Source: a virus. Taken from it: DNA of 46,874 nt. The stretch is taken from positions 1 through 46,874 of the IMG/VR virus record IMGVR_UViG_3300005096_000102; one strand, given 5' to 3'. The first letter of the stretch is position 1; each line of letters opens with the position of its first letter. The position numbers were made by a program, and so were the translations under genes. Positions 2,224 to 42,223 of this stretch are shown in pieces. The notes below the pieces were generated by a model that was not told the origin of the DNA, ran no database searches, and worked only from the letters and a program-made list of their open reading frames with translations.

Positions 2224-2288
2224 AAATCCCCCAATGCCAATAAAGGTAACTCAATAATCATTTGATTGTCGACATTGCAATTGTTTAT

Positions 2289-2304
2289 CCTACAAATTTG
2301 TAGG
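2289..2304. promoter_or_regulatory. 16-bp perfect palindrome, probable operator
   Basis: CCTACAAATTTGTAGG is a perfect 16-bp palindrome, 66 bp upstream of the resolvase gene start on the minus strand. The absence of a T-run on either side and the lack of a loop argue against a terminator. Its place between the minus-strand operon start and the repeat region fits a binding site for a dimeric repressor, for example the RHH-like or HTH protein of this phage. That link is inferred. Confidence 0.5.
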
Positions 2305-2505
2305 GTAAGCCAAAAATGGATTTATCCCATAAATTTAGCAGTTAAAACGGACTTAAAACTAACTTAAAAAGTTAAAATTCGGCGTTTTTGCCAAAAAACT
2401 GGAAGCGTTTTAACTAAAATTAATAAAAATGTTTTTGGTTTTTCGTTTATGACGCGCTCGTTGGTAATGCAACCTTGTGCCCAAACTTAAATTTAACGTT
2501 ATCAG

Positions 2506-2536
2506 TTACCCTTAGAGCGTATGCGCTCAAGGGTAA
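2506..2536. other. Strong hairpin in the intergenic control region
   Basis: Arms 2506-2519 and 2524-2536 pair over 13 bp (TTACCCTT plus GAGCG against CGCTC plus AAGGGTAA) with one bulged A at 2514 and a 4-nt loop. The hairpin is stable but no T-run follows on either strand. It may be an operator, a structured RNA element, or a single-strand structure in a replication origin. Confidence 0.5.
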
Positions 2537-2566
2537 GCTAAAATTTTAAATCTGTCAATAGCTCAA

Positions 2567-2794
2567 GTGGGTTACAAGGGGGCCTTGGGTGACATGGTTT
2601 CAGAAATCTATATAGAATAAAAAAGTCACAACGTTTGCCATTCCTAATTTCAATGTACGTCAAATAGTTAGTCTTTTTCTTACCTGTAAATTCTAAAAGT
2701 AAGTAACCCAAGTAACCCAATGACCCAATTATATAATATCATTAAACTTTTAGTGGGCTACAAGCTTTAAACCTTATGACCCCTTGTAACCCAC
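2567..2794. repeat. Cluster of five TGGGYTAC boxes with flanking 15-bp inverted repeat, candidate origin or operator array
   Basis: TGGGTTAC or its complement occurs at 2568-2575 (+), 2703-2710 (-), 2712-2719 (-) and 2786-2793 (-), and TGGGCTAC at 2754-2761 (+). The outer copies extend to a perfect 15-bp inverted repeat, 2567-2581 against 2780-2794. A longer 12-bp form, GTGGGYTACAAG, is present three times. The central two are tandem at 9-bp spacing and next to an A/T-only tract (2729-2741). Repeated binding boxes beside an AT-rich tract, between divergent operons, are typical of phage origins or multi-operator control regions. No coding frame of substance is present. Confidence 0.6.
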
Positions 2795-2847
2795 ATAATT
2801 TTAACCGCGCTTTTGGTAAAAGGCGCTTAAAAGCGCTTACTAGAACT

Positions 2848-2901
2848 CTAATATCACTAAAATCACTAATATCGCTAAAATCACTAATATCGCAAAAATT
2901 A
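2848..2901. repeat. Iteron-like tandem repeats (18-bp unit x3; 9-bp half-unit x5)
   Basis: Three consecutive 18-bp units start at 2848, 2866 and 2884, with consensus CTAATATCRCTAAAATCA. The first two differ at one position and the third is more divergent. Read another way, a 9-bp unit of consensus AWATCRCTA is repeated five times at 2851-2895. The array lies 133 bp upstream of the receiver-domain gene. Such iterons usually bind a replication initiator or a repressor. None of the window's proteins can be assigned as the binder from sequence alone. Confidence 0.65.
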
Positions 2902-2981
2902 ACAATTCCTTAACAGTCGTGTAAAAACTACAAAAAATGATTCAATCCTAAACAGGCGCTTGAAAATCGCTGAGGTCTATG

Positions 2982-3033
2982 TTTTTTGTGTTACAATAAA
3001 GTTGCGCCAAACGAACAAACGAAGGGGTTCCAA
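2982..3033 (+). promoter_or_regulatory. Early leader and likely promoter of the receiver-domain operon
   Basis: TTTTTTGTGTTACAATAAAG is followed by GCCAAACGAACAAACGAAGGGGTTCCAA and the ATG at 3034. The same arrangement (T-run, TAxxxT, GCCAAAC, AAC/AAAC repeats, AAGGGGTTC, AAATG) recurs before the gene at 6170. The shared block probably contains the promoter -10 (TACAAT at 2992-2997) and a conserved ribosome site (AAGGGG). No good TTGACA-like -35 is seen at normal spacing, so an activator or phage-modified polymerase may be needed (inference). Confidence 0.5.
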
Positions 3034-3384
3034 ATGAAACTATTAATCGTTGAAGACAATCAAGACATTGCCGAAGGGCTTACCGGCCTATTAGAACAGC
3101 ATGACCACACCGTAAGTCATGTGGTGAACGGGGCGTTAGCTCTTGAAGAGCTTAGCCGCTCGGATTTTGACGCTATTATAAGTGACGTCAACATGCCGAC
3201 AATGGACGGGCTCACGTTCTCGGTCCTAGCCCGCGAGAATGGCTTACAAGCGCCCATAATCCTTTTTACGGGGGAAAGTGACCTTGACCCCAAAATGCTC
3301 CAAGACGGACGGATTTCGGCGGTATTTGGTAAAATGGACATTACCCCACTTATTAAAGCAATTAACAAAATGGGGGCGAAATGA
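3034..3384 (+). CDS. Stand-alone response-regulator receiver domain (CheY-like), 116 aa
   Basis: A complete phospho-acceptor domain with no output domain. All signature residues are present: the acidic pair E7/D8 in LLIVEDN, the phospho-acceptor D51 in ISDVNMP, the switch T79 in ILFTGE and the conserved K100 in FGKMD. The frame is open to a TTG at 2986, but the ATG at 3034 is the evident start, since it is preceded by AAGGGG and gives the canonical N-terminus. It is the first gene of the rightward early operon and overlaps the next gene by 4 bp (ATGA). No histidine kinase or partner output protein is encoded here, so it would have to take phosphate from, or dock onto, host signalling proteins. 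Phage-borne receivers are uncommon. The fold is certain; the role is not. Confidence 0.88.
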   Translation: MKLLIVEDNQDIAEGLTGLLEQHDHTVSHVVNGALALEELSRSDFDAIISDVNMPTMDGLTFSVLARENGLQAPIILFTGESDLDPKMLQDGRISAVFGKMDITPLIKAINKMGAK

Positions 3385-3605
3385 TTGAAAGTGACGAAGA
3401 ACTTTTTGATCGGTTGGACGCCACTATTCAAAACGGGGAAGTTTTACTTCTTAACTTTGAAATGGTTAAGGCCCACGTTGAGCGGTGGTCGAGGTTGGTA
3501 GAAGAACACGAAATTGCGGAAGGTCCGCCTTGTTCTTGCACAACTACAATTGTCACCCAACCAAACCCAAAATTTTGTATTGGTTGCGAACGAAGGATTG
3601 AATAA
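3381..3605 (+). CDS. Small protein with C-terminal zinc-ribbon-like Cys pairs, 74 aa
   Basis: Not recognised as a family. The N-terminal 45 residues are acidic and helical. The C-terminus has CSC and CIGC spaced about 15 residues apart (PCSC ... FCIGC), a likely zinc-binding knuckle. Translation is coupled to the receiver gene by an ATGA overlap and to the next gene by TAATG. The position directly behind the receiver suggests the two are made together, but no functional link can be shown. Confidence 0.65.
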   Translation: MIESDEELFDRLDATIQNGEVLLLNFEMVKAHVERWSRLVEEHEIAEGPPCSCTTTIVTQPNPKFCIGCERRIE

Positions 3606-3829
3606 TGTCTCGAGAAATCAACCCAACAACTTTTGCCGAAGCAAGGCAAGCCATGCGAGACAAAACCGTCAAAATCAAAAGGGTTTACTGCGGCCGGTGC
3701 GAAACAATGAGACTCACTGAAGAGTTAAACATTGAGGGTTGCATTCACCACGATAAGCAATATCCCGAATGTCTCGACCGTAAAGCGTGTGAACGTAGAA
3801 AAAGGAAAACAAATAATGGCCGTCGGTAA
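3605..3829 (+). CDS. Small Cys-rich basic protein, putative zinc finger, 74 aa
   Basis: Contains CGRC (residues about 29-32) and a second group, C-x-H-H then EC and AC, before a strongly basic C-terminus (RRKRKTNNGRR). A zinc-stabilised nucleic-acid-binding protein is likely, but the family is not recognised. It starts at the ATG that overlaps the preceding TAA by one base and ends 14 bp inside the next gene. Part of the tightly coupled early operon. Confidence 0.65.
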   Translation: MSREINPTTFAEARQAMRDKTVKIKRVYCGRCETMRLTEELNIEGCIHHDKQYPECLDRKACERRKRKTNNGRR

Positions 3830-4052
3830 GCATGACAAAGAACAATTAGTCAATGGGGTTCGCTTAAGGCATTGCAACCGGTGTGAGCGTTACTTGGAGC
3901 GGGAACAAAACTTTGGAGCTCGGAAGTACAAACCAACGACCACTAACCCAATGGGTTGGATTGGTTTCCAATCGACATGTAAAAAGTGTTTGGCCAATTA
4001 CCTTAAGGAATACCGAGGGTCGGGCCGAACTGAAATGGGGGTGGCGTTATGA
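3816..4052 (+). CDS. Treble-clef-type zinc protein, 78 aa
   Basis: The pattern HCNRCERYL ... NFGARKY ... WIGFQSTCKKCLANYLKEYR has two CxxC knuckles separated by about 30 residues and a conserved aromatic core. This arrangement is common in the zinc-finger part of phage HNH-associated proteins. The HNH catalytic His/Asn residues themselves are absent, so nuclease activity is not supported. The start is the ATG at 3816, with AAAGGAAA as ribosome site; the frame runs open further upstream without a site. It overlaps the next gene by 4 bp. Confidence 0.65.
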   Translation: MAVGKHDKEQLVNGVRLRHCNRCERYLEREQNFGARKYKPTTTNPMGWIGFQSTCKKCLANYLKEYRGSGRTEMGVAL

Positions 4053-4264
4053 AACATAGACGTTTTTTAATCCCCACAACCCATTTAGATTTATTCTTAA
4101 CCGCGCTCTTTGTTAATTTTACGGATACAAACTTTAAACCAATCGCGCAATGGATTTTCCAAACTGAAGAGGGTTATGACGTTATCGTTAAAATGGAACA
4201 CAATAGCCCAACCAGAGAAGCGGAAATTGAACAATTTGTTAAGGACATGAAGGATAACAAATGA
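4049..4264 (+). CDS. Unknown early protein, 71 aa
   Basis: No family recognised. The N-terminal half is hydrophobic and aromatic (LDLFLTALFVNFTD) but is interrupted by charged residues, so it is more likely a folded core than a membrane span. The C-terminal third is an acidic helix. ATGA overlaps at both ends place it in the coupled early operon. Confidence 0.6.
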   Translation: MKHRRFLIPTTHLDLFLTALFVNFTDTNFKPIAQWIFQTEEGYDVIVKMEHNSPTREAEIEQFVKDMKDNK

Positions 4265-4548
4265 AAACATTATTCTTTATTGGTTTTAACTTTGAACAAG
4301 CCAAGTTCCATTCCCGTGAATTTATGTCTGAAGTTGGGGGCGCTTGGATGCGTGACTTGCGTCTTAACAGGTTCACCCACCACAACAAACAAATAGTGAT
4401 TGTCCCGGTGGGCGACATTGCGCCCATACTAGGTTACAAAAACTATGAACTTAAAAAGGTTGGTGAGTGGTATAAGCGGCCAAGCGCCGACCTTAAACTC
4501 ATTGCCCGGCTTGAACAAAGACTCGAAACGTTTGAAGGCCCTCAATGA
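4261..4548 (+). CDS. Unknown early protein, 95 aa
   Basis: No family recognised. A mixed alpha/beta composition with FFIGFNFEQAKF at the start, a central basic/aromatic part and NKQIVIVPVGDIAPILGY suggests a small globular protein. The C-terminus is a charged helix. The ATGA overlaps with both neighbours give good support for it being translated. Confidence 0.6.
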   Translation: MKTLFFIGFNFEQAKFHSREFMSEVGGAWMRDLRLNRFTHHNKQIVIVPVGDIAPILGYKNYELKKVGEWYKRPSADLKLIARLEQRLETFEGPQ

Positions 4549-4907
4549 AATATATTGAACGCAAACAACTTAAAAAACAAGCCGCCGGTTTTTATGCAAC
4601 GGCTTACCGTAAAAACAACCGCGCTAAAAAGGCCAACGTTATTGTTACAGCACTCGAAAGTTCATTCGAAAACTTAGTTGGGTTTCGTAACCTTGCACTC
4701 GACAACTCACAAATCCAAGAGCTCAAATGCTCGTTCCAATACGTTGTCAATGAGGGACTCGAAGACTTCAGAGTACGCGAACAACGGCACTTACCAAAGG
4801 ACGACGAACTCGAAAGTCTTGCGACCAAAATTGTTATTGAAACTTTTGTGGTGCCAAAGACGGACTTAGTTGTTCGCATTAAAGACCTACTTAAGAGGGA
4901 ACTGTAA
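4545..4907 (+). CDS. Unknown early protein, basic N-terminus, 120 aa
   Basis: No family recognised. The first 30 residues are strongly basic (RKQLKKQ, YRKNNRAKKA), followed by a predominantly helical acidic/amphipathic body ending in VVRIKDLLKREL. A nucleic-acid-binding role is possible from the basic arm but unproven. The ATG overlaps the previous stop (ATGA), and its own TAA overlaps the next start (TAATG). Confidence 0.6.
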   Translation: MKYIERKQLKKQAAGFYATAYRKNNRAKKANVIVTALESSFENLVGFRNLALDNSQIQELKCSFQYVVNEGLEDFRVREQRHLPKDDELESLATKIVIETFVVPKTDLVVRIKDLLKREL

Positions 4908-5431
4908 TGGCGCTCTTAAACACTCGGCACGGGAAGGACAAAATGAAACGAACAATAAAAAAAGTTGCCGACGACTTGTTTTCTGAAGTAATGCGCGGTG
5001 AACACGACGACAAATGCGCCATGGGGCTAAAAGACGAAATTGAAAAAAGACTCAACAAAGCATTGCACCGAACCAACAACGCTTACGACCGCAAACCCGG
5101 CAAAAAGGAAATTTGGATGGAACGAAAAATACTTTATTTTAAACTTGAAAATAAAAAGATTGTCGAGGCCAAGAGCATTGAAGAGTGGGGCGAGTTTTTC
5201 AGGTCGCATGACCGCATTGTCGGGAAGACGGAAGTTGGGATTTATTTAATTTCAACTATTTTCTTAGGAATAGATCATAACTTTTACAATGAAGGACCGC
5301 CATTGCTTTTTGAAACAATGGTTTTAGGTACAAAAGAAGACGAATACCAAGAGCGTTTTGCAACTTGGGAAGAGGCCGAAAAGGGACACGATTTTGCGGT
5401 AAAATTAGTTGAAGCGGGGAAAATAAAATGA
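4907..5431 (+). CDS. Unknown early protein, 174 aa
   Basis: The largest unrecognised member of the early operon. The N-terminal 60 residues are basic and helical, with an acidic stretch EVMRGEHDDK. A second part (IWMERKILYFKL ... GEFFRSHDRIVGKTEVGIYLISTIFLGIDHNF) looks like a small alpha/beta domain. The ATG at 4907 has GAGGGA upstream and overlaps the preceding TAA. An internal ATG at 4943 is an alternative start. The C-terminus overlaps the next gene by 4 bp. Confidence 0.6.
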   Translation: MALLNTRHGKDKMKRTIKKVADDLFSEVMRGEHDDKCAMGLKDEIEKRLNKALHRTNNAYDRKPGKKEIWMERKILYFKLENKKIVEAKSIEEWGEFFRSHDRIVGKTEVGIYLISTIFLGIDHNFYNEGPPLLFETMVLGTKEDEYQERFATWEEAEKGHDFAVKLVEAGKIK

Positions 5432-5727
5432 AATTAAGAAACTTTGTCGTGAATTTAGCTATTCCAATGGGCGCCGGCCCAGTTGACACCGCCGCTTACA
5501 TTTTCAACGCCGTTTGTGGTTATAGTGGTGGGCTCAACCCCGACGACCCGTTCTTTGGCCTTAATAGATATTCAATAACTGTCGAACCCATTGAGCTTAA
5601 TCAGTTGACTTTAACGGCTCTTCAAAAGACCGACGCCAAGGGTAAACTTAAAATGGCTATTATGTTGGGCCCTATGAATGAATTGGAAGAGAGACTCGAC
5701 AAAGTTTTAGACGAGGTGTTCAAATGA
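5428..5727 (+). CDS. Unknown early protein, 99 aa
   Basis: No family recognised. It opens with a moderately hydrophobic stretch (FVVNLAIPMGAGPVDTAAYIFNAV) that is not long enough to be a clear membrane span, and closes with an acidic helix (MNELEERLDKVLDEVFK). ATGA overlaps join it to both neighbours in the early operon. Confidence 0.6.
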   Translation: MKLRNFVVNLAIPMGAGPVDTAAYIFNAVCGYSGGLNPDDPFFGLNRYSITVEPIELNQLTLTALQKTDAKGKLKMAIMLGPMNELEERLDKVLDEVFK

Positions 5728-5981
5728 AATTTTATATTCTACGACCAATAGAAGGGTTACTTGACGACGAGAACCCGTGGGAACCTTGGTATGACAAATG
5801 TTTCGGCATGGTTGTGGCCGCAAAAAGCCCCAATGAAGCCCGTAAAGTTGCAACAGAAAACTCTTCGAGTGAAACCGACGACCGGGAAACGTGTTGGTCC
5901 GACCCTCGGTATTCTACTTGTAAAGAACTTAAACTTCCAAAAGAATCAGAGCTCATAATTAAGGACGAACATTGGGCCTAA
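5724..5981 (+). CDS. Conserved-type small protein of unknown function, 85 aa
   Basis: It has a compact pattern that I associate with a small hypothetical protein found in phages and bacteria: FYILRP at the start, PWYDKCFGMVVAAKSPNEARKVA, then CWSDPRYSTCKEL and a final II.DEHWA. No activity is known to me. It is the last gene of the first early transcription unit, and the terminator at 6030-6070 follows 48 bp after its stop. Confidence 0.6.
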   Translation: MKFYILRPIEGLLDDENPWEPWYDKCFGMVVAAKSPNEARKVATENSSSETDDRETCWSDPRYSTCKELKLPKESELIIKDEHWA

Positions 5982-6029
5982 TAATTTAAGTAAGTTTGAC
6001 CCCACGTTTGTTTGGCGACAACATGGGTT

Positions 6030-6070
6030 GGCTCGGTCCTTAACTTAGCGGAAGGGGCCGGGCCTTTTTT
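6030..6070 (+). terminator. Rho-independent terminator of the first early operon
   Basis: A 10-bp stem, GGCTCGGTCC (6030-6039) against GGGCCGGGCC (6055-6064), pairs without a mismatch if two G-U pairs are allowed in the RNA. It has a 15-nt loop and is followed directly by six T residues (6065-6070). It ends the transcript from 3034. Confidence 0.85.
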
Positions 6071-6118
6071 ATGTCTCAGTTAAATACATTAACACAAAAA
6101 AGGTGGGCCTTTTAGGGG

Positions 6119-6169
6119 TGTTTTTGGTATTCTAAGGGTGCCAAACAAACAACAAACCAAGGGGTTCAA
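6119..6169 (+). promoter_or_regulatory. Second copy of the early leader/promoter block
   Basis: TGTTTTTGGTATTCTAAGGG followed by TGCCAAACAAACAACAAACC and AAGGGGTTCAA runs directly into the ATG at 6170. It matches the leader at 2982-3033 in order, spacing and most bases. Lying just after a strong terminator and before a new gene pair, it is very likely a promoter plus ribosome site. The -10 candidate is TATTCT at 6128-6133. Confidence 0.55.
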
Positions 6170-6502
6170 ATGACCGCAATCGAGAAATTCAAATTAATAG
6201 TCGAAGTAAAACAACAAACACCCGAAGAACGAGCCATTGCCGACGAAATTCAACATTGTTCAATGTTTTTGTCGTCCGCCCTTTGTGCCACTGAAGACGA
6301 ACACCACGAAATCTTAGACGTTATGAACCAAGTGACCGTTAAAATTGTCCCTCGGAACTCTTTTAAAAAGGCGTCCCGTTTGGACTTTGACAACCTATTA
6401 ATTGAAGTTTGCGAAGCCGACCTTTACGAAATTTTATTACAAGTTCGCGGTCGATTGGCCGACGCCTTCCAACATTGTTTACAACTGGAAGTTACGAAAT
6501 GA
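6170..6502 (+). CDS. Unknown early protein, 110 aa
   Basis: No family recognised. Mostly helical and acidic, with four Cys residues not arranged as a metal site. It starts at the ATG directly behind the conserved AAGGGGTTCAA leader and overlaps the WGR gene by 4 bp (ATGA), so the two form one unit. Confidence 0.62.
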   Translation: MTAIEKFKLIVEVKQQTPEERAIADEIQHCSMFLSSALCATEDEHHEILDVMNQVTVKIVPRNSFKKASRLDFDNLLIEVCEADLYEILLQVRGRLADAFQHCLQLEVTK

Positions 6503-6783
6503 AAAAATTAGGACGTTATGAACTTGTAGACTCCAAAGCCGGTGTTACGGGCTCTTCAAAATTCTATGAGGTAACTTTCAACGTTCCGAGCAAAACGTTT
6601 TCAGTCCATTGGGGTAAGATTGACGGCAAAAGAATGTCGGCCCATGGTTACTTGGCGCGAGAAGTAACAAAGAAAATTTCTGAAAAACTCCGTAAAGGTT
6701 ATAGGTTTGTTGGGCCCGCCATGGAATGCCGGATTGAATTCCCCGACCATGTTGTAAAAGATGCAATTAAGAAGGTCTCTTAA
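6499..6783 (+). CDS. Stand-alone WGR-domain protein, 94 aa
   Basis: The sequence matches the WGR pattern: SSKFYEVTFN, then FSVHWGKIDGK in place of the typical W-G-R core, then AREVTKKISEKLRKGYRFVG, ending in the lysine-rich helix and K-G-Y that close the domain. WGR domains in PARPs and in bacterial MolR-type proteins bind nucleic acid or partner proteins. Here the domain fills most of the protein with no enzyme attached. The start is the ATG at 6499, overlapping the previous TGA; the longer upstream frame is unsupported. In an early phage unit it could bind DNA ends or modulate a host WGR-containing protein (inference). Confidence 0.65.
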   Translation: MKKLGRYELVDSKAGVTGSSKFYEVTFNVPSKTFSVHWGKIDGKRMSAHGYLAREVTKKISEKLRKGYRFVGPAMECRIEFPDHVVKDAIKKVS

Positions 6784-6812
6784 AAACAAAAAGCCCGGTA
6801 CGGAACCGAGCT
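6782..6812 (-). terminator. Minus-strand terminator ending the kinase/primase transcript
   Basis: On the minus strand an 8-bp stem, AGCTCGGT against ACCGGGCT (plus-strand 6805-6812 and 6792-6799), with one G-U pair and a 5-nt loop, is followed by TTTTTGTTTT. On the plus strand the same stem has a C-A mismatch and no T-run. This orients the terminator towards the leftward genes from 10272. Confidence 0.7.
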
Positions 6813-7123
6813 ATTTGAAGTCAATTTTAACTAAGTCCAATTGGTCATTAACAAACCTGAGAGTGCCCCACTTAGCCGGAGTCTGGGGCTTACCTGATTA
6901 TCACCCAAAATCTTTGCCGGTTGAACGTAGTGCCCGAAGGCGTTCTGTTAAACGTTGCAGGAAGAAACAAGTAAAGTGAACCGCACTTAATTTAAACGTG
7001 CAAGAATTTATTTTAATTTGTAACGCACTTAATAAAAACCGCCCGCCGTGGACATTTATCTCAACCGGAAGCGTCGTGCGCCATGGCGCTTTTTAACCCG
7101 GCGGCGGACGGTCCCCTAGGGAC
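6813..7123. other. Structured non-coding stretch downstream of the dNMP kinase gene
   Basis: About 310 bp lie between the kinase stop and the leftward terminator. They contain a GCCCCA/TGGGGC hairpin (13-nt loop, about 6869-6893), the palindrome GCGCCATGGCGC (7078-7089) followed by TTTTT on the plus strand, and GGTCCC/GGGACC with a 3-nt loop (7110-7124) touching the kinase stop codon. GC-rich complementary tracts lie at about 7039-7048 and 7099-7110. No convincing gene is present: the 72-codon plus-strand frame at 6761-6979 runs through the terminator and lacks a ribosome site. It would be transcribed as a long 3' tail of the leftward mRNA, or as a separate small RNA. Confidence 0.5.
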
Positions 7124-10029: not shown

Positions 10030-10272
10030 TTATCTAGTAGTCTTTTTACGTTTGGTTTTTGCGTTCTCTTCCTTAATCTTTGCCTTTGCGTAAGGCTCGT
10101 AAATCGAAGCCCAAGTTACCGAGTCAAGACTCGCCTTTATTATATAGTAAGCCATTTGGGGCCTAGGGACCGATTCAAGGCGCTTCCAAGAGTATACGTT
10201 CGACTCGGACGTCTCGAGTTTGTCCGCCAAAGTTGACGCGCCGACCTGTTCTATGAAATCTGATAATGTCAC
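10030..10272 (-). CDS. Small Cro/CI-type HTH regulator, 80 aa
   Basis: The sequence SDFIEQVGASTLADKLETSESNVYSWKR has the helix-turn-helix layout of small Cro-like repressors, including the S-x-x-x-V/I-Y-x-W recognition-helix pattern. The C-terminus is Lys/Glu-rich. The likely start is GTG at 10272 with a GGGGG ribosome site 5 bp upstream. The start region overlaps, on the opposite strand, the ATG proposed for the SNF2 helicase gene, so its promoter lies inside that gene's 5' end. It probably controls the divergent replication genes. Its operators could be any of the palindromes in this window (inference). Confidence 0.72.
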   Translation of the reverse strand: MTLSDFIEQVGASTLADKLETSESNVYSWKRLESVPRPQMAYYIIKASLDSVTWASIYEPYAKAKIKEENAKTKRKKTTR

Positions 10273-22799: not shown

Positions 22800-23996
22800 T
22801 TAACCCGCCAATGGTAAAAAGTTAATTCGTTCAACAGTGTAGCTAATCCCACTTGCTTCATTTGTTTCAAGCTCTAAATGTACTTGTTGAGCGGCCCCAA
22901 CACCCGTGAGGACGGTGTCAATTTGTAAATTAACATTGCCGATGTTCACCTTCTCGTCTCGACTTTCCCTAGAGATAGTCGCGTCGGCGGCCCCATGGCC
23001 ATTGTGAATCTGTTGAATTTCAAGCCTTTTAACTCGGGCCGGGTTTGCCGTGTCCCTCGCAACAATAACCCAAGTTGCAGTTTGGAACTCGTCAACGTCA
23101 TAAGAGTCGGTGTTAACTGCGACGTTTTGGACGAGGACCCCATTTTTCTGAAGTGAGATTTTCTCAATCGCAGCTTCGAGTTCGGTGTTAACCGTGGTTT
23201 GCGGGACGTCGTCCGTTATAATACCACCGGGGTAAGCCCCCATTTCGGTGTCACCTTGTACGATACCTAGAGCGGTGTAAATATTTTTTTGGTTTCCGTC
23301 AAGTTTTTCGATTGCAAGTTCAACTGAGTTGCCCGCTGCAACTACACCCGCGGCACTTGCGTAACCACCACTTAAGGCAATTCCAGTTGCAAACGCCCAA
23401 TCAACATCGCCGATTTTTACAGCATTACCCGCCCCATTTATTTGAACAAGGGCTTGCCCCTCTTGACCAACTGGGTCCGGTAAATAGTTAGGTGTAATGA
23501 AGTTATCAAATTCGGCAAGAGCCGGGTTTGCAACCGGGTCAACCGGAACTGCGAAAGTTACGTTCGGGGCTGCGACAACCGTCGCTTCGAGAAGCACGGC
23601 GGTTCCGCCCGCGGTTCCAATGATAAATTCCCCAACCGTGAAATTTGTGGCGTCAATCCCTGCACCGTCGTCGTCCGTAAAAGGCGTTGAAGTTAAGTTG
23701 CGGACGCCGGGGGTAATTGCTTCGCCCGTGATGACTCGAATTTTCTCTTTACGAAATCCTAGTTGTAAACTTCCACTTCCAATTTCAACCCAATCCGAAG
23801 CCGAGCTCGTATTGAATTTCTTTTGATAAAGCCCACCACCAATTAAATCTTTGTATTCAGAACCAATCGGAGCTTCGTCGGTCTCACCGGCCGTGCCAAT
23901 TGGAGCATTGTCGCCTATTAAAAAATCAGCGAATTTTGTGTCGTCGTCGCCCACGAAAATACGAAGACCCTTGCCTATTCCTTTTAATACTTGCAT
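22800..23996 (-). CDS. Large fibre-region structural protein, 398 aa
   Basis: The N-terminus has the shared API-GS-Y-D / DWVEIGS module (about residues 42-72). The middle part is beta-rich (NFTVGEFIIGTAGGTAVLLE), with a helix-forming stretch AGNSVELAIEKLDGNQKNIYTALG and later NTELEAAIEKISLQKNG, a pattern that suggests coiled segments of a trimeric fibre. The C-terminal 110 residues are again beta-rich. A tail fibre or spike is the best guess. Confidence 0.6.
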   Translation of the reverse strand: MQVLKGIGKGLRIFVGDDDTKFADFLIGDNAPIGTAGETDEAPIGSEYKDLIGGGLYQKKFNTSSASDWVEIGSGSLQLGFRKEKIRVITGEAITPGVRNLTSTPFTDDDGAGIDATNFTVGEFIIGTAGGTAVLLEATVVAAPNVTFAVPVDPVANPALAEFDNFITPNYLPDPVGQEGQALVQINGAGNAVKIGDVDWAFATGIALSGGYASAAGVVAAGNSVELAIEKLDGNQKNIYTALGIVQGDTEMGAYPGGIITDDVPQTTVNTELEAAIEKISLQKNGVLVQNVAVNTDSYDVDEFQTATWVIVARDTANPARVKRLEIQQIHNGHGAADATISRESRDEKVNIGNVNLQIDTVLTGVGAAQQVHLELETNEASGISYTVERINFLPLAG

Positions 23997-26393: not shown

Positions 26394-28448
26394 TTATTTT
26401 GGACCAACACAAATGCCGCTCATTGATAAATCAGCGGCACCGGCCGTTGACGATAGTAAACACAACGACCTAACTTGGTTTGCACTTAATGAGTTGTCAT
26501 TAGAATGACAAATCCCTTGAATGTTACTTGAATCGGAACTAATGGCACAACTCGGTGGTGCGGAAAAAGTACCACTTGTGAAATTGTGAGTCCAATCCCC
26601 CGCACCGTTATCAGTTACGGAATCAATACAATTGTCGTGCCTATCTAATATCGGTGTCCCCCCTGAGTTATCTACTGAAAACGAACAAATTCGAACATCG
26701 GCCAATTGTGACTCGGGCTTAAAGCTAAGACTATTGGTGATGCCTGTAAAGGCCGCTTGAACCCCACCTTGAATCAGTTTCTCTACAGTTATAATAAATG
26801 TTCCGGCCAACATTAAGTTTTCCGCAACGGTTGCGGTTGCCGTGGTTGCTGATTTCATTAAAAGAGTTTTTTCCCCAGCCGAACCAAAATTAAAGGTTTC
26901 GCATAAAGGCAGACTCATGTCTACCTCTTGGAAACCGGCACTCGTCGTTGTTTTATTGTTGATTTGCTGTAAATTTACACCATTTTGAAGTTCGGTATTA
27001 AGGCCGTCGTTAGAAACGACGTTCCATGTAAAGTTATTCTGAATAGCCCCCGACGCGCCAACTTCCAGTCGAGTAGTGAATTGAGTACAAACTTTATACC
27101 AACCAGAAGTGTCCGCAACAAAATTAGTTCCGTATTGCCCAGAGCCGGCACAAGTTAAACCTTCTGAAGGCCCGCTAAGACAAGGTAACTTAGCACTATG
27201 AGTTCCATAATTCGTTAATACCAAAGACCCAGAAGACAAATACCTAGACGCGACTGTTGCAGTACCTAGATTTATGTTGGCCCCCGTAATTGTTTGTTTA
27301 ATAAAGAAACCCGAAGTTTCTACTGTGAGGCCTTCCTGGAAATTCCCGCCAAGGTCATTTCTTTTTTCAAGCTGGACGTAACTGTCAAACCTTGAACTAC
27401 TTCCGAAAATAAAGGAAACACCACTGGCTGAATTTGCCGTAAAAGTAAGGGTTGTATCTGTAGCCGTGAAAATTGTACTGATTGGCAAGTATACATAATC
27501 CTGACTGGTCCCGGTGTCAGCAATTCGTATAGTTGGCCGATCTAAATCTTGCGCTCCGTTTTCAATATCAACTTGAATAGTTGTATCAACACCGCCGTTG
27601 TTTACAAATAAAGCTAGGCGCCCTCCGATTTCATAAGTTGCGCCAATTTCTAAATTACTATATGTAAACTCTGCAATAATTCCGTTTGTGGTCACGTTTG
27701 CTGTTAATACTTTAGTCTCAATTTCATTTTTTGGTACAGCTTGGACAATGCTCAAACCTGCACCTATAAAAGCCGAGTCAATTTTTATAGGGTCCGCATC
27801 GGCGACCGTAGACTCCAAGCATAATTGTAAGGTGTCCGTGTCAGTGCCGGGGCAAGGGAATGTCAATGTGGAAGGCTTACTATCCGAACCGACCGTTAAA
27901 TTAAAATCAACTTCCGCAACATCGACCCCAGTGTCTCGGGCTACTAATTTATAATCACCGTTGGCCCCAACTGGGTAAGTGTATTTTATTTGAGCTTGGC
28001 AAGTCCCGCCGATAAAGCCCCGCTCGATTGTTATTGCATCCGAACAAAGCGTTTGTGCGGAAGCATCCGAGTCCCAATTGCCTGAAACAAGTCCGTGTAA
28101 TTGTGTCGCAACGTCGGCGGTAAAAACCCCACCCGAGGCGGTCCAATTGTCCGGCGGCGTGCCGGTTTCAAAATCGCCGTTATTGTCTGAAAGTAAGTTG
28201 ACACCCGAGCCCCCGCCGGAACCCGAACCCAAAGGCTTGAAATTTATTCCGTTGGTTGTGAACTCTAAAAGGCCGTTTGTTTCGTTCGATCTTATTTGAC
28301 GAACTGGTCCGAGGTTTATAATTTTGTCGTCGGTTGAGCCGGGTTTGCCGACGGTTAAAACATCGTCGCCGATCTTTGCACCGGAAGCTACAATTGCCGT
28401 AAATAAAACGGCAATAATTATTAAGAAGTTTTTAGCATAGTTTTTCAT
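26394..28448 (-). CDS. Large fibre-like protein with signal peptide and carbohydrate-binding-like domain, 684 aa
   Basis: The N-terminus is a signal peptide (basic NYAKN, hydrophobic FLIIIAVLFTAIV, cleavage near ASGA). Next come a short beta domain, a GSGSGGGSG linker (about residue 75) and a segment opening NLLSDNNGDFETGTPPDNW that reads like a galactose-binding/CBM jelly roll (about 80-240). Further beta-rich domains follow, and a Cys-rich C-terminal 110 residues. The ATG at 28448 with GGGGGA upstream is preferred over 28460, which overlaps the previous stop. Its location downstream of the baseplate genes suggests a host-recognition protein, yet an export signal is not expected for one assembled in the cytoplasm. 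The stretch at roughly 26.6-28.0 kb looks different in base usage from its neighbours. Confidence 0.6.
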   Translation of the reverse strand: MKNYAKNFLIIIAVLFTAIVASGAKIGDDVLTVGKPGSTDDKIINLGPVRQIRSNETNGLLEFTTNGINFKPLGSGSGGGSGVNLLSDNNGDFETGTPPDNWTASGGVFTADVATQLHGLVSGNWDSDASAQTLCSDAITIERGFIGGTCQAQIKYTYPVGANGDYKLVARDTGVDVAEVDFNLTVGSDSKPSTLTFPCPGTDTDTLQLCLESTVADADPIKIDSAFIGAGLSIVQAVPKNEIETKVLTANVTTNGIIAEFTYSNLEIGATYEIGGRLALFVNNGGVDTTIQVDIENGAQDLDRPTIRIADTGTSQDYVYLPISTIFTATDTTLTFTANSASGVSFIFGSSSRFDSYVQLEKRNDLGGNFQEGLTVETSGFFIKQTITGANINLGTATVASRYLSSGSLVLTNYGTHSAKLPCLSGPSEGLTCAGSGQYGTNFVADTSGWYKVCTQFTTRLEVGASGAIQNNFTWNVVSNDGLNTELQNGVNLQQINNKTTTSAGFQEVDMSLPLCETFNFGSAGEKTLLMKSATTATATVAENLMLAGTFIITVEKLIQGGVQAAFTGITNSLSFKPESQLADVRICSFSVDNSGGTPILDRHDNCIDSVTDNGAGDWTHNFTSGTFSAPPSCAISSDSSNIQGICHSNDNSLSANQVRSLCLLSSTAGAADLSMSGICVGPK

Positions 28449-28459
28449 TTTGTCCCCCA

Positions 28460-29053
28460 TTACACTAGAAACGTTTTAAAGTTTGTCACTTTAAGCGTTC
28501 CCGAATAAGTTGTTCCCGTTAAGTCGTCGGTTGTGTATTGCAATTTCGACACTAGACCCGCAACCAATTCAATGTTGAAAACAACACCGGCGTCGTCAAG
28601 TTTAGAGTCAAAAGAAAAATTCCATTTATCATTTTCCGCCCCGGCGTCGTCGGGGTTATAACTTCCATAGAAGGTTCCCATCTCAACTTCGCTATTTGAG
28701 TCAGTCCGACGGGTGATTTCAAAGTCAAACTTGAAGGCCTTGACAACTGAAGAGTCAAAAGTTGGCATTGTAGCCACGTCCAAAGGACCCGAGTTGTTCG
28801 CTAAGGCTTGTTCGATTGGTGCGGCTCTTCCGCCCCTTTGAATGAGTTCAATCATTGAGTCCTTCAGTTGGTCGAAGGTGTCCGTTGACGAAGTCAAAAG
28901 GGGAATACCAACTTCGCGAACTACGTTTGCTATTTCCTCTTGCCATGCATTCGCAATGGCCGCCGAGACCACGGTCGCGGGAATGCTTAACGAAGCATTT
29001 CCTTCCGTGAATAAGTTACCGACGGTCGCCCCGTCCGAATCAATTACATGCAT
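28460..29053 (-). CDS. Tail fibre, baseplate-proximal, 197 aa
   Basis: The first 80 residues match the usual start of myovirus fibres that attach to the baseplate (NLFTEGNASLSIPATVVSAAIANAW, VVREVGIPLLTSSTDTFDQL). The C-terminal half is beta-rich (KFDFEITRRTDSNSEVEMGTF ... YTTDDLTGTTYSGTLKV), perhaps a small receptor-binding or adaptor domain. It directly follows the gp48-like gene and precedes the large signal-peptide protein, the standard position for the first fibre gene. GGGGGA lies before the ATG. Confidence 0.7.
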   Translation of the reverse strand: MHVIDSDGATVGNLFTEGNASLSIPATVVSAAIANAWQEEIANVVREVGIPLLTSSTDTFDQLKDSMIELIQRGGRAAPIEQALANNSGPLDVATMPTFDSSVVKAFKFDFEITRRTDSNSEVEMGTFYGSYNPDDAGAENDKWNFSFDSKLDDAGVVFNIELVAGLVSKLQYTTDDLTGTTYSGTLKVTNFKTFLV

Positions 29054-40042: not shown

Positions 40043-42223
40043 TTAGACGCCGGCGTTTTTGTAGAACCCACGGTAATCCAAGATTCGCATTCCAAAAACA
40101 TAACGAATTTTTGTTTCCATGCCGTCAACTTCAAAGCCCTCACGAACTGAAATTTCAGGACCGCGACCGTCAAGTCGTGCCATTTCCGCCATTTCAACCA
40201 TTGCTTTAGCTGCGAACATGTACCACGCAGTTGACGAAGCGGCATCCAAGCGAGGCTCAACAATTTGTTGAAGGTTGCCCGAGAACGGGTTCACTTGACT
40301 GTTTTGGTTTGGTGTAACTTGGCTTAAGAATTGATTACCAGTCGTTTCAAGAGCCGCCGGCGTTACTAGGAAGTTGGCATTAAGTCCGCCTATTAATTCC
40401 CCGTCAAGGTCAAGGTGGGTTCTCATTGCTTGACGACCTTTGCCTAATGAAGCAATCGAAATAACCGAAGGCACGGCATCCAAGTTGTTGTGGCCCGCTG
40501 TATTGAATAGTGCCAAGTTTGTCTCAAGCATAACTTGCGAATTGATAATTAGGTTCCAAAAGATTTCACTTTCTTTTTCACGGGCACGTTTACCGAGTTT
40601 TGCGGCAATATCCGTGAATGCTCCGAGGTCATCATTCATCATGAGTTCCCAAGTTCGCCCAATGATCTTACCAAATTTTTCAACTTTGTAAGTTTCTTTA
40701 GACTCTTCAAGCGTTGTTCTCTCATACTCGCCGTGCTCATTAACCGGAGTTAAACGACCGCCGTCACTTAGCTTCATTTTGTTAATGTTTTTGAAATCGG
40801 GAACACTTGTTTCGTTCACGAACGGCATAAATGTTGCCGGGGCCGAAGCGTAAGAATCGGAAAGACTTTTGTTCGAAACGTCGGCTAAAACATTTGGAAA
40901 GTCTGAAGAGTGGTGCAACGCTCTAGTTGCAACTTCATTCTTAGTTAACGTGTGAGCGTTAGTCACGCCCTCACTTGCAAGAAAATTTCTTGCAGTTTGA
41001 ACGAGTGAGTCCGTGCGGAACTCAGTGTCGCCCTCTTCCAACTTATAAAGTGCTGGGTTCGTGCGGTGTAACAAACCTCTTACCGCCGCTTTTTTTCTTA
41101 ACTCTTTTTGTTCCATGTCTTTTACCTCGACTCGTTGGTTCATTGTTACACTGCTAGTTCTTTTTTCCATTTCTTCAAAAATAAGTGCACGGGCGTCCGT
41201 CACTGTAATCTTTGCGTCTCGGCAAAGAGTGTCCGCAAACTTCGGTTCAAGTTTTGCAACTGTAACCGCGCTGCGAATATCGTCTTGGCGTTTAATTTCG
41301 GCCAAGCGAATAGCTTCGGGGTCGACTTGCGTTGTTGCAACTTTTGCAGCACGCGCGGCATCGTCCGCAGCTTTTTTGTCTGCGGCTTCTTTGTCCGCAG
41401 CTTCTTTGTCGGCCGCTTCTTTGTCGGCCGCTTCTTTGTCGGTCGCCGCTTTTTCGTCGGCTTCCAATTTGTCGGCATCGGCATCTAATGCGGCCGCTTC
41501 CGTTTCCGTTGTAACGGCTTGTTCCTCTTCGCCTTCATTGCGTAACTCGAGGGCCTTTGCACGTTTGGCTTCGGCCTCTTTTCTTTTTATCTTAAACAGG
41601 CTCATGGCCCCCCCTTGTATTGGTTGATTTCTTATTACTTCAACGTCATTAAAAAATTGTTCGTCGAGACTTCGAGCTTGCGCCCCGTCGTCGGCGGGAA
41701 TTGCAACGAAACTTAATTCCATTGGTTCCCAATCAACCGCCCGCAAAACAGGTAAGTCTTCGAATTTTTGTTTTTGTTCTTCAAATTTATTCACGCGGTA
41801 ACCAATGCTTAACTTGGTAATAATTCCTTCGCGAATGTCTTGAACGGTTCCGGCTCGTTCGGGTCGGTTGGTCAAGCGAACTTTTGCAACCCCAATGTTT
41901 TGGCCGTCTTTGTCTTTTTCGATTCGGGCACTTTCGACTTTGCCTATAACATCGTCAAGACCACTAATGCCGCCCCCACCAAAAATACTTTGAGCGGTTC
42001 CGTGGTTGTCTAAGACCGGCGCACCGGACTTGAAACGTGAAAGGTTAACATGCGATTTTTTCAAACTTAACTCTTCGAAAAATTCCCCTTCAGAAAACGA
42101 AAACCTTTTTACTTTCGAACCAGTTGAGAAAACCACTTCAATACTATTTTCGTCCTCGTTGAAACTCGAAGCCCTGAAGCTTGCATGCAAACGTTCACGC
42201 TTAACTTTAATCTTGCGTTTCAT
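40043..42223 (-). CDS. Prohead protease - major capsid protein fusion, 726 aa
   Basis: Residues about 1-190 form an HK97-type prohead protease: PVLDNHG with the catalytic His (about 73), ITKLSIGYRV with the Ser (about 137) and EPMELSFVAIPADDGA. Residues about 205-350 are a scaffold-like helical linker with repeated AADKE units (encoded by 15-bp repeats at 41372-41446). Residues about 355-726 form the major capsid protein (RKKAAVRGLLHRTNPALYK ... VEKFGKIIGRTWELMMNDD, ISVREGFEVDGMETKIRYVFGM). The capsid would be matured by self-cleavage of the protease and linker. The start overlaps the portal gene by 17 bp. No stop or frameshift separates the parts. Confidence 0.88.
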   Translation of the reverse strand: MKRKIKVKRERLHASFRASSFNEDENSIEVVFSTGSKVKRFSFSEGEFFEELSLKKSHVNLSRFKSGAPVLDNHGTAQSIFGGGGISGLDDVIGKVESARIEKDKDGQNIGVAKVRLTNRPERAGTVQDIREGIITKLSIGYRVNKFEEQKQKFEDLPVLRAVDWEPMELSFVAIPADDGAQARSLDEQFFNDVEVIRNQPIQGGAMSLFKIKRKEAEAKRAKALELRNEGEEEQAVTTETEAAALDADADKLEADEKAATDKEAADKEAADKEAADKEAADKKAADDAARAAKVATTQVDPEAIRLAEIKRQDDIRSAVTVAKLEPKFADTLCRDAKITVTDARALIFEEMEKRTSSVTMNQRVEVKDMEQKELRKKAAVRGLLHRTNPALYKLEEGDTEFRTDSLVQTARNFLASEGVTNAHTLTKNEVATRALHHSSDFPNVLADVSNKSLSDSYASAPATFMPFVNETSVPDFKNINKMKLSDGGRLTPVNEHGEYERTTLEESKETYKVEKFGKIIGRTWELMMNDDLGAFTDIAAKLGKRAREKESEIFWNLIINSQVMLETNLALFNTAGHNNLDAVPSVISIASLGKGRQAMRTHLDLDGELIGGLNANFLVTPAALETTGNQFLSQVTPNQNSQVNPFSGNLQQIVEPRLDAASSTAWYMFAAKAMVEMAEMARLDGRGPEISVREGFEVDGMETKIRYVFGMRILDYRGFYKNAGV
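41372..41446 (-). repeat. Five 15-bp tandem repeats coding for AADKE units
   Basis: The plus-strand unit TTCTTTGTCGGCCGC is repeated five times (41372, 41387, 41402, 41417, 41432) with a few base changes. It encodes five consecutive Ala-Ala-Asp-Lys-Glu-type pentapeptides in the linker of the protease-capsid fusion. Unit number could change by slippage; the reading frame is kept in 15-bp steps. Confidence 0.85.

What the first reader, a model, noticed from the sequence alone, without database searches (positions are those of the whole stretch)
3034..3384. Phage-encoded stand-alone receiver domain opens the early operon
All catalytic residues of a response-regulator receiver are intact (E7, D8, D51, T79, K100), but there is no output domain and no kinase in the window. 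It is the first gene after the control region and so probably among the first made. It may act as a phosphate sink or decoy for a host histidine kinase, redirecting host signalling, which is rare in phage genomes.
Basis: partly seen in the sequence, partly recalled or inferred. Interest (0 to 1): 0.65.

Follow-up and report, generated by a model that had tools for sequence, protein, structure and literature searches.

The report
Phage-borne single-domain response-regulator receiver
An uncultured tailed phage carries, as the first gene of an operon of small unknown genes, a complete CheY-like phosphate-accepting switch with no output domain and no partner kinase; it is real and probably plugs into the host's signalling, but such genes are already known in a few other phages and nothing here shows what it does.

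Summary
Window 3034-3384 (+) encodes a 116-residue stand-alone receiver (PF00072, 66 bits, E=4e-18) with E7, D8, D51, T79 and K100 in place. It folds as a receiver (AlphaFold pLDDT 86; PDB receivers at TM about 0.9). It is the only receiver in a 46.9-kb myovirus record, and HATPase_c, HisKA and Hpt models find nothing. It leads a tightly overlapping rightward operon of small unknown genes, divergent from the late operon. Codon usage matches the phage, so it is not an obvious recent import or chimera.

It belongs to no identifiable host family: best matches are mostly 30-39% identical to receivers from many lineages, and the tree leaves it on a long unplaced branch. This mildly favours a phosphate sink or kinase competitor, but a CheY/EpsW-like protein-binding output is not excluded.

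It is not unprecedented: Alteromonas phages V22 and A5 and two further kinds of viral contig carry unrelated stand-alone receivers. Verdict: real, new member of a known, sparse kind; function untested.

The parts
3034..3384 (+). Single-domain response-regulator receiver, 116 aa (acid pocket E7/D8, phospho-acceptor D51, T79, K100)
3021..3027 (+). Shine-Dalgarno-like GAAGGGG 6 nt before the ATG
   Evidence: sequence; supports the ATG at 3034 over the upstream TTG at 2986
2989..2997 (+). Possible extended -10 promoter element TGTTACAAT, no good -35; inference only
   Evidence: read from the sequence; the consensus scan did not list it and found no excess of promoter-like sites
2224..3033 (.). 810-bp divergent non-coding region between the leftward (late-type) genes and the rightward operon
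2848..2899 (.). Array of 9-bp units (18-bp period CTAATATCGCTAAAATCA), unique in the genome; candidate iteron or operator array
   Evidence: 5 matches, 0.03 expected
3381..3605 (+). Next gene, 74 aa with two Cys pairs, start overlapping the receiver's stop (ATGA); no family
3605..6979 (+). Rest of the rightward run of small, mostly overlapping ORFs without known families (one weak WGR match at 6490-6783)

Best explanation
This is a genuine single-domain receiver made by a tailed phage that has no cognate kinase of its own. It most likely accepts a phosphoryl group on D51 from one or more host histidine kinases or Hpt proteins, and so competes with the host's own response regulators (phosphate sink or kinase competitor), damping or redirecting a host two-component pathway during infection. 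Shown: receiver fold and catalytic set, absence of output domain and kinase, operon position, phage-like codon usage, altered output face. Inferred: phosphorylation by host kinases, early timing, sink behaviour, and benefit to the phage.
For: All five catalytic residues are kept although the protein is mostly only 30-39% identical to any receiver found, which implies selection for phosphorylation chemistry. The fold is intact. No kinase or Hpt in the record, so the donor must be a host protein or a small phosphodonor. The output side is altered: the residue at K-3 is V97 instead of an aromatic, the Pro after the Lys is M101, T79-to-K100 spacing is 21 instead of the usual 22, and helix 4 is only 6 residues at pLDDT about 65. 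In the comparison set 27 of 29 longer receivers and 15 of 21 short ones with an assignable Lys have K-P, and 28 of 29 and 17 of 21 an aromatic at K-3. It heads an operon of overlapping small genes with phage-like codon usage (z=-1.0). Precedents of principle: DifD of Myxococcus is a single-domain phosphate sink for a kinase (PMC12802240); phage protein PIT4, which has no conserved domain, acts by binding several host histidine kinases (PMC10714779).
Against: No biochemical data, host unknown, no close homologue in which to measure selection. Loss of the aromatic and Pro is seen in some cellular stand-alone receivers too (the Bdellovibrio plasmid receiver lacks the Pro), so it does not prove lack of output. 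A 116-aa receiver can equally signal by binding a target. The structural model is least reliable in exactly the altered region.
Confidence: 0.42

Rival explanations
1. CheY/EpsW-like output by protein contact: once phosphorylated by a host kinase the receiver binds a specific host or phage protein (motor, pilus, polysaccharide enzyme, polymerase or phage regulator) and changes its activity.
For: Many characterised single-domain receivers work by binding targets; EpsW allosterically activates a glycosyl transferase (PMC12802240). The closest stand-alone cellular matches are CheY-like chemotaxis-type receivers sharing the ISDVNMPTMDG block, but those were fetched partly through that very block.
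Against: Usual output features (aromatic switch, Lys-Pro, helix 4) are altered; no partner gene recognisable in the operon.
Confidence: 0.3
2. Spo0F-like phosphorelay intermediate: it shuttles phosphate between host kinases and a host Hpt or regulator, rewiring rather than draining a pathway.
For: Single-domain receiver with full catalytic set; Spo0F among the structural matches.
Against: So are hundreds of other receivers; no Hpt in the record; host unknown.
Confidence: 0.1
3. A phosphorylation-independent role or a passenger gene: the receiver is used as a binding scaffold for a kinase or other protein, or is a cargo gene of little effect.
For: Receiver folds can act without phosphorylation (general knowledge); nothing in the window proves function.
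Against: All five catalytic residues retained at great sequence distance, phage-like codon usage and tight translational coupling.
Confidence: 0.15
4. cRec: a divergent receiver acting as a cyclic-phosphate processing enzyme in nucleotide conflict systems, as proposed for jumbo phages.
For: Phage-borne stand-alone receiver-like domain (PMC7824862).
Against: The protein matches ordinary Response_reg strongly; the annotated cRec phage protein is only a marginal structural match, TM 0.55, E 0.019, far below ordinary receivers; no NAD/ADP-ribose enzymes recognised among the genes scanned.
Confidence: 0.03

Closest known systems
CheY-like protein of Alteromonas phages V22 (ORF30, 149 aa) and A5 (gp11)
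   Same: Stand-alone receiver in a tailed phage without a kinase beside it; function unknown, called an auxiliary metabolic gene (PMC7289586, PMC10579305)
   Different: Lies in the late region beside tail fibre and chaperone, has canonical YIPKPF output motif and a C-terminal extension (V22); not specifically related to the window protein (tree)
Stand-alone receivers in IMG/VR contigs L026/L027 and L028
   Same: Single-domain receivers (about 120 aa) among viral genes
   Different: 27-33% identical at most, different neighbourhoods, not grouped with the window protein in the tree
Single-domain response regulators of bacteria (CheY, Spo0F, EpsW, DifD)
   Same: Fold, size, catalytic residues
   Different: No aromatic at K-3, no Pro after Lys, short helix 4; carried by a phage without its kinase
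Bdellovibrio sp. HAGR004 plasmid pBdHAGR3 stand-alone receiver (117 aa)
   Same: Same length, 35% over residues 1-100, TG after beta 4 and no Pro after the Lys
   Different: Keeps the aromatic at K-3; not grouped with the window protein in the tree; no evidence that the phage infects Bdellovibrio
PIT4 of Pseudomonas phage LSL4
   Same: Early phage protein that interferes with host two-component systems (PMC10714779)
   Different: No receiver domain; [quoted passage not shown]

Membership tests
Response-regulator receiver domain (PF00072) | Sequence match above the curated cut-off | tested here: met
   66 bits against 30.2, E=4e-18
Response-regulator receiver domain (PF00072) | Acid pair, phospho-acceptor Asp, Thr/Ser and Lys conserved | tested here: met
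   E7/D8, D51, T79, K100 (alignments)
Response-regulator receiver domain (PF00072) | (beta-alpha)5 fold | tested here: met
   AlphaFold model and Foldseek against PDB; residues 80-100 are low confidence
Response-regulator receiver domain (PF00072) | Accepts phosphate on the Asp | not testable with these tools
   needs phosphotransfer assay
Single-domain response regulator (CheY/Spo0F class) | No output domain | tested here: met
   116 aa, receiver covers the whole protein
Single-domain response regulator (CheY/Spo0F class) | Canonical output features: aromatic at K-3 and Lys-Pro (common, not universal in the class) | tested here: not met
   V97 and M101; because these features are not universal, this argues against CheY-type output, not against class membership
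Single-domain response regulator acting as phosphate sink | Drains phosphate from a kinase that has another regulator | not testable with these tools
   host and kinase unknown
cRec (cyclic-phosphate processing receiver of jumbo phages) | Divergent receiver linked to NAD/ADP-ribose processing genes | tested here: not met
   ordinary Response_reg match; marginal structural match to an annotated cRec; no such enzymes recognised among the genes scanned
Alteromonas phage CheY-like family | Specific sequence relationship to V22 ORF30 / A5 gp11 | tested here: not met
   V22 and A5 group together at 100/100, window protein elsewhere on a long unplaced branch

The most novel reading that the evidence does not exclude
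A phage early protein that is a stripped receiver: phosphorylation chemistry kept, output face altered, made as a dedicated phosphate sink to silence host two-component signalling at the start of infection.
Probability: 0.3. Interest if true: 0.6.

Novelty: new member of a known kind. Interest (0 to 1): 0.33.

Why it matters
If the sink reading is right, phages use the host's own signalling currency to jam two-component systems, a simple and general takeover strategy; none of the papers searched here reports a phage receiver tested for phosphotransfer. The gene is small and easy to express, so the question can be settled with standard assays once a host, or a panel of kinases, is at hand.

Tried and rejected
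Close relatives: single-protein scans of viral contigs with the receiver, primase and helicase found none. A wider receiver alignment was too diverse to scan with. Nucleotide search of phages gave nothing. The phage-collection receiver hits inspected are response regulators with output domains, mostly in unverified, probably bacterial contigs, and were not counted as phage precedents. Host assignment was not achieved: the large terminase subunit resembles Wolbachia WO, Rhodobacter and Silvanigrella phages, the polymerase phages of several Gram-negative hosts, and capsid relatives in Pseudomonadota genomes are at most about 38% over full length. The tree does not place the receiver. A recent-import reading was tested and not supported (codon z=-1.0). 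Promoter and terminator scans found no excess over shuffles.

Full report
Observation. The ORF at 3034-3384 (+) starts with ATG behind a GAAGGGG element and encodes 116 residues with E7, D8, D51, T79 and K100 as stated. It matches PF00072 at 66 bits, E=4e-18, and PHROGs of unknown function. The AlphaFold model (pLDDT 86.3, pTM 0.81) shows the alternating five-strand receiver fold and matches solved receivers at TM mostly 0.85-0.92. This is far beyond chance.

Setting. The window is a virus record of 46,874 bases with myovirus structural genes (sheath, baseplate, tape measure, portal, fused capsid-protease, terminase), an endolysin and its own replication genes (primase, helicase, exonuclease, ssDNA-binding protein, polymerase). 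No integrase was recognised among the proteins scanned. Structural genes run leftward from 46,794 to about 19,163; a neck/tail completion gene at 206-835 and other genes up to 2223 run leftward too, so the late operon probably continues across the ends of a circularly permuted map (inference). The receiver is the first gene of a rightward run of small overlapping ORFs from 3034 to 6979, behind an 810-bp non-coding region. The next gene overlaps its stop codon (ATGA). None of the neighbours tested has a clear family; the WGR match at 6490-6783 is below the curated cut-off. Early timing is plausible but not shown.

No kinase. PF00072 finds only this gene. HATPase_c, HisKA and Hpt models find nothing at E<=1, while most control genomes ring. 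Any phosphate must come from the host or from a small phosphodonor.

Origin. No close relative was found in viral contigs. Matches in bacterial genomes and plasmids are mostly 30-39% identical over 80-110 residues and come from Gammaproteobacteria, Betaproteobacteria, Helicobacter-labelled bins, Omnitrophota, rhizobia, Pantoea (44% over 81 residues) and Bdellovibrio. A maximum-likelihood tree of 59 receivers leaves it on a branch of 2.7 changes per site with no supported group. Codon choice fits the phage's core genes (z=-1.0), so a very recent import or an assembly chimera is not supported.

Anatomy of the output side. In the comparison set, 28 of 29 longer receivers and 17 of 21 short ones with an assignable Lys have an aromatic residue three before it, and 27 of 29 and 15 of 21 have Pro after it. 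The short set includes the window protein itself, is small, and is biased toward resemblance to it, and some Lys assignments in it are doubtful. The window protein has V97 and M101, a spacing of 21 instead of 22 from Thr to Lys, and a helix 4 of only 6 residues at low confidence. From established knowledge of receivers, this face carries the conformational signal to partners in CheY and to dimerisation in OmpR-type regulators. Catalysis is kept while the usual output face is altered. This is a mild argument for a sink or kinase competitor and not a proof.

Mechanism. The best-supported account is that the protein takes phosphate from host kinases or Hpt proteins and competes with the host's regulators (0.42). 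The main rival is a CheY/EpsW-like output by binding a specific target (0.3). A phosphorelay role (0.1), a phosphorylation-independent role or passenger (0.15) and a cRec-type enzyme (0.03) follow. DifD shows that single-domain receivers can be sinks, EpsW that they can be allosteric effectors (PMC12802240), and PIT4 that phages do attack host kinases (PMC10714779).

Precedent. Alteromonas phages V22 and A5 carry stand-alone CheY-like proteins in a shared host-recognition module (PMC7289586, PMC10579305). Viral contigs L026/L027 and L028 carry two more kinds. BFVD lists further receivers in tailed phages, including a 143-aa 'CheY-like receiver' of an uncultured caudovirus. In the tree the Alteromonas and contig receivers do not group with the window protein, which suggests several separate captures, although deep branches are weak. 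The finding is therefore a new, divergent member of a sparse known kind.

Verdict. Observation confirmed; interpretation partly supported; interest 0.33. It would rise if phosphotransfer and a D51-dependent effect on host signalling were shown.

Noticed in passing
2848-2899: Array of alternating 9-bp units (CTAATATCR/CTAAAATCA), found nowhere else in the genome and far above chance; may be a replication-initiator or regulator binding array in the divergent control region.
   Followed up: partly
2567-2590 and 2771-2794: 24-nt inverted repeat (83% complementary) with 180 nt between the arms in the same control region, with related GTAACCCA repeats at 2701-2728.
   Followed up: no
10030-10272: Small helix-turn-helix protein, weakly like phage repressors/YdaS, transcribed away from the helicase gene at 10266; candidate replication-region regulator.
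   Followed up: partly
6490-6783: Small protein with a weak WGR-domain match (E 0.0016, below cut-off).
   Followed up: no
40043-42223: Capsid-protease fusion (726 aa) with an internal tandem repeat at 41363-41464; relatives in Rhodobacter, Pseudomonas and Bordetella phages at 33-37%.
   Followed up: partly
22800-23996 and 26394-28460: Two large late-region proteins (398 and 688 aa) without any Pfam or PHROG match, in the place where tail fibres are expected.
   Followed up: partly
whole window: The phage has no near relative in the collections searched: packaging genes resemble Wolbachia WO/Rhodobacter phages while the polymerase resembles phages of Janthinobacterium, Xanthomonas and Pseudomonas; apparently a new genus-level or deeper lineage.
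   Followed up: partly
phages collection, e.g. OR846615, OR847096, MT835528: Many unverified 'phage' records appear to be bacterial contigs carrying ordinary response regulators; they inflate apparent phage receiver counts.
   Followed up: partly
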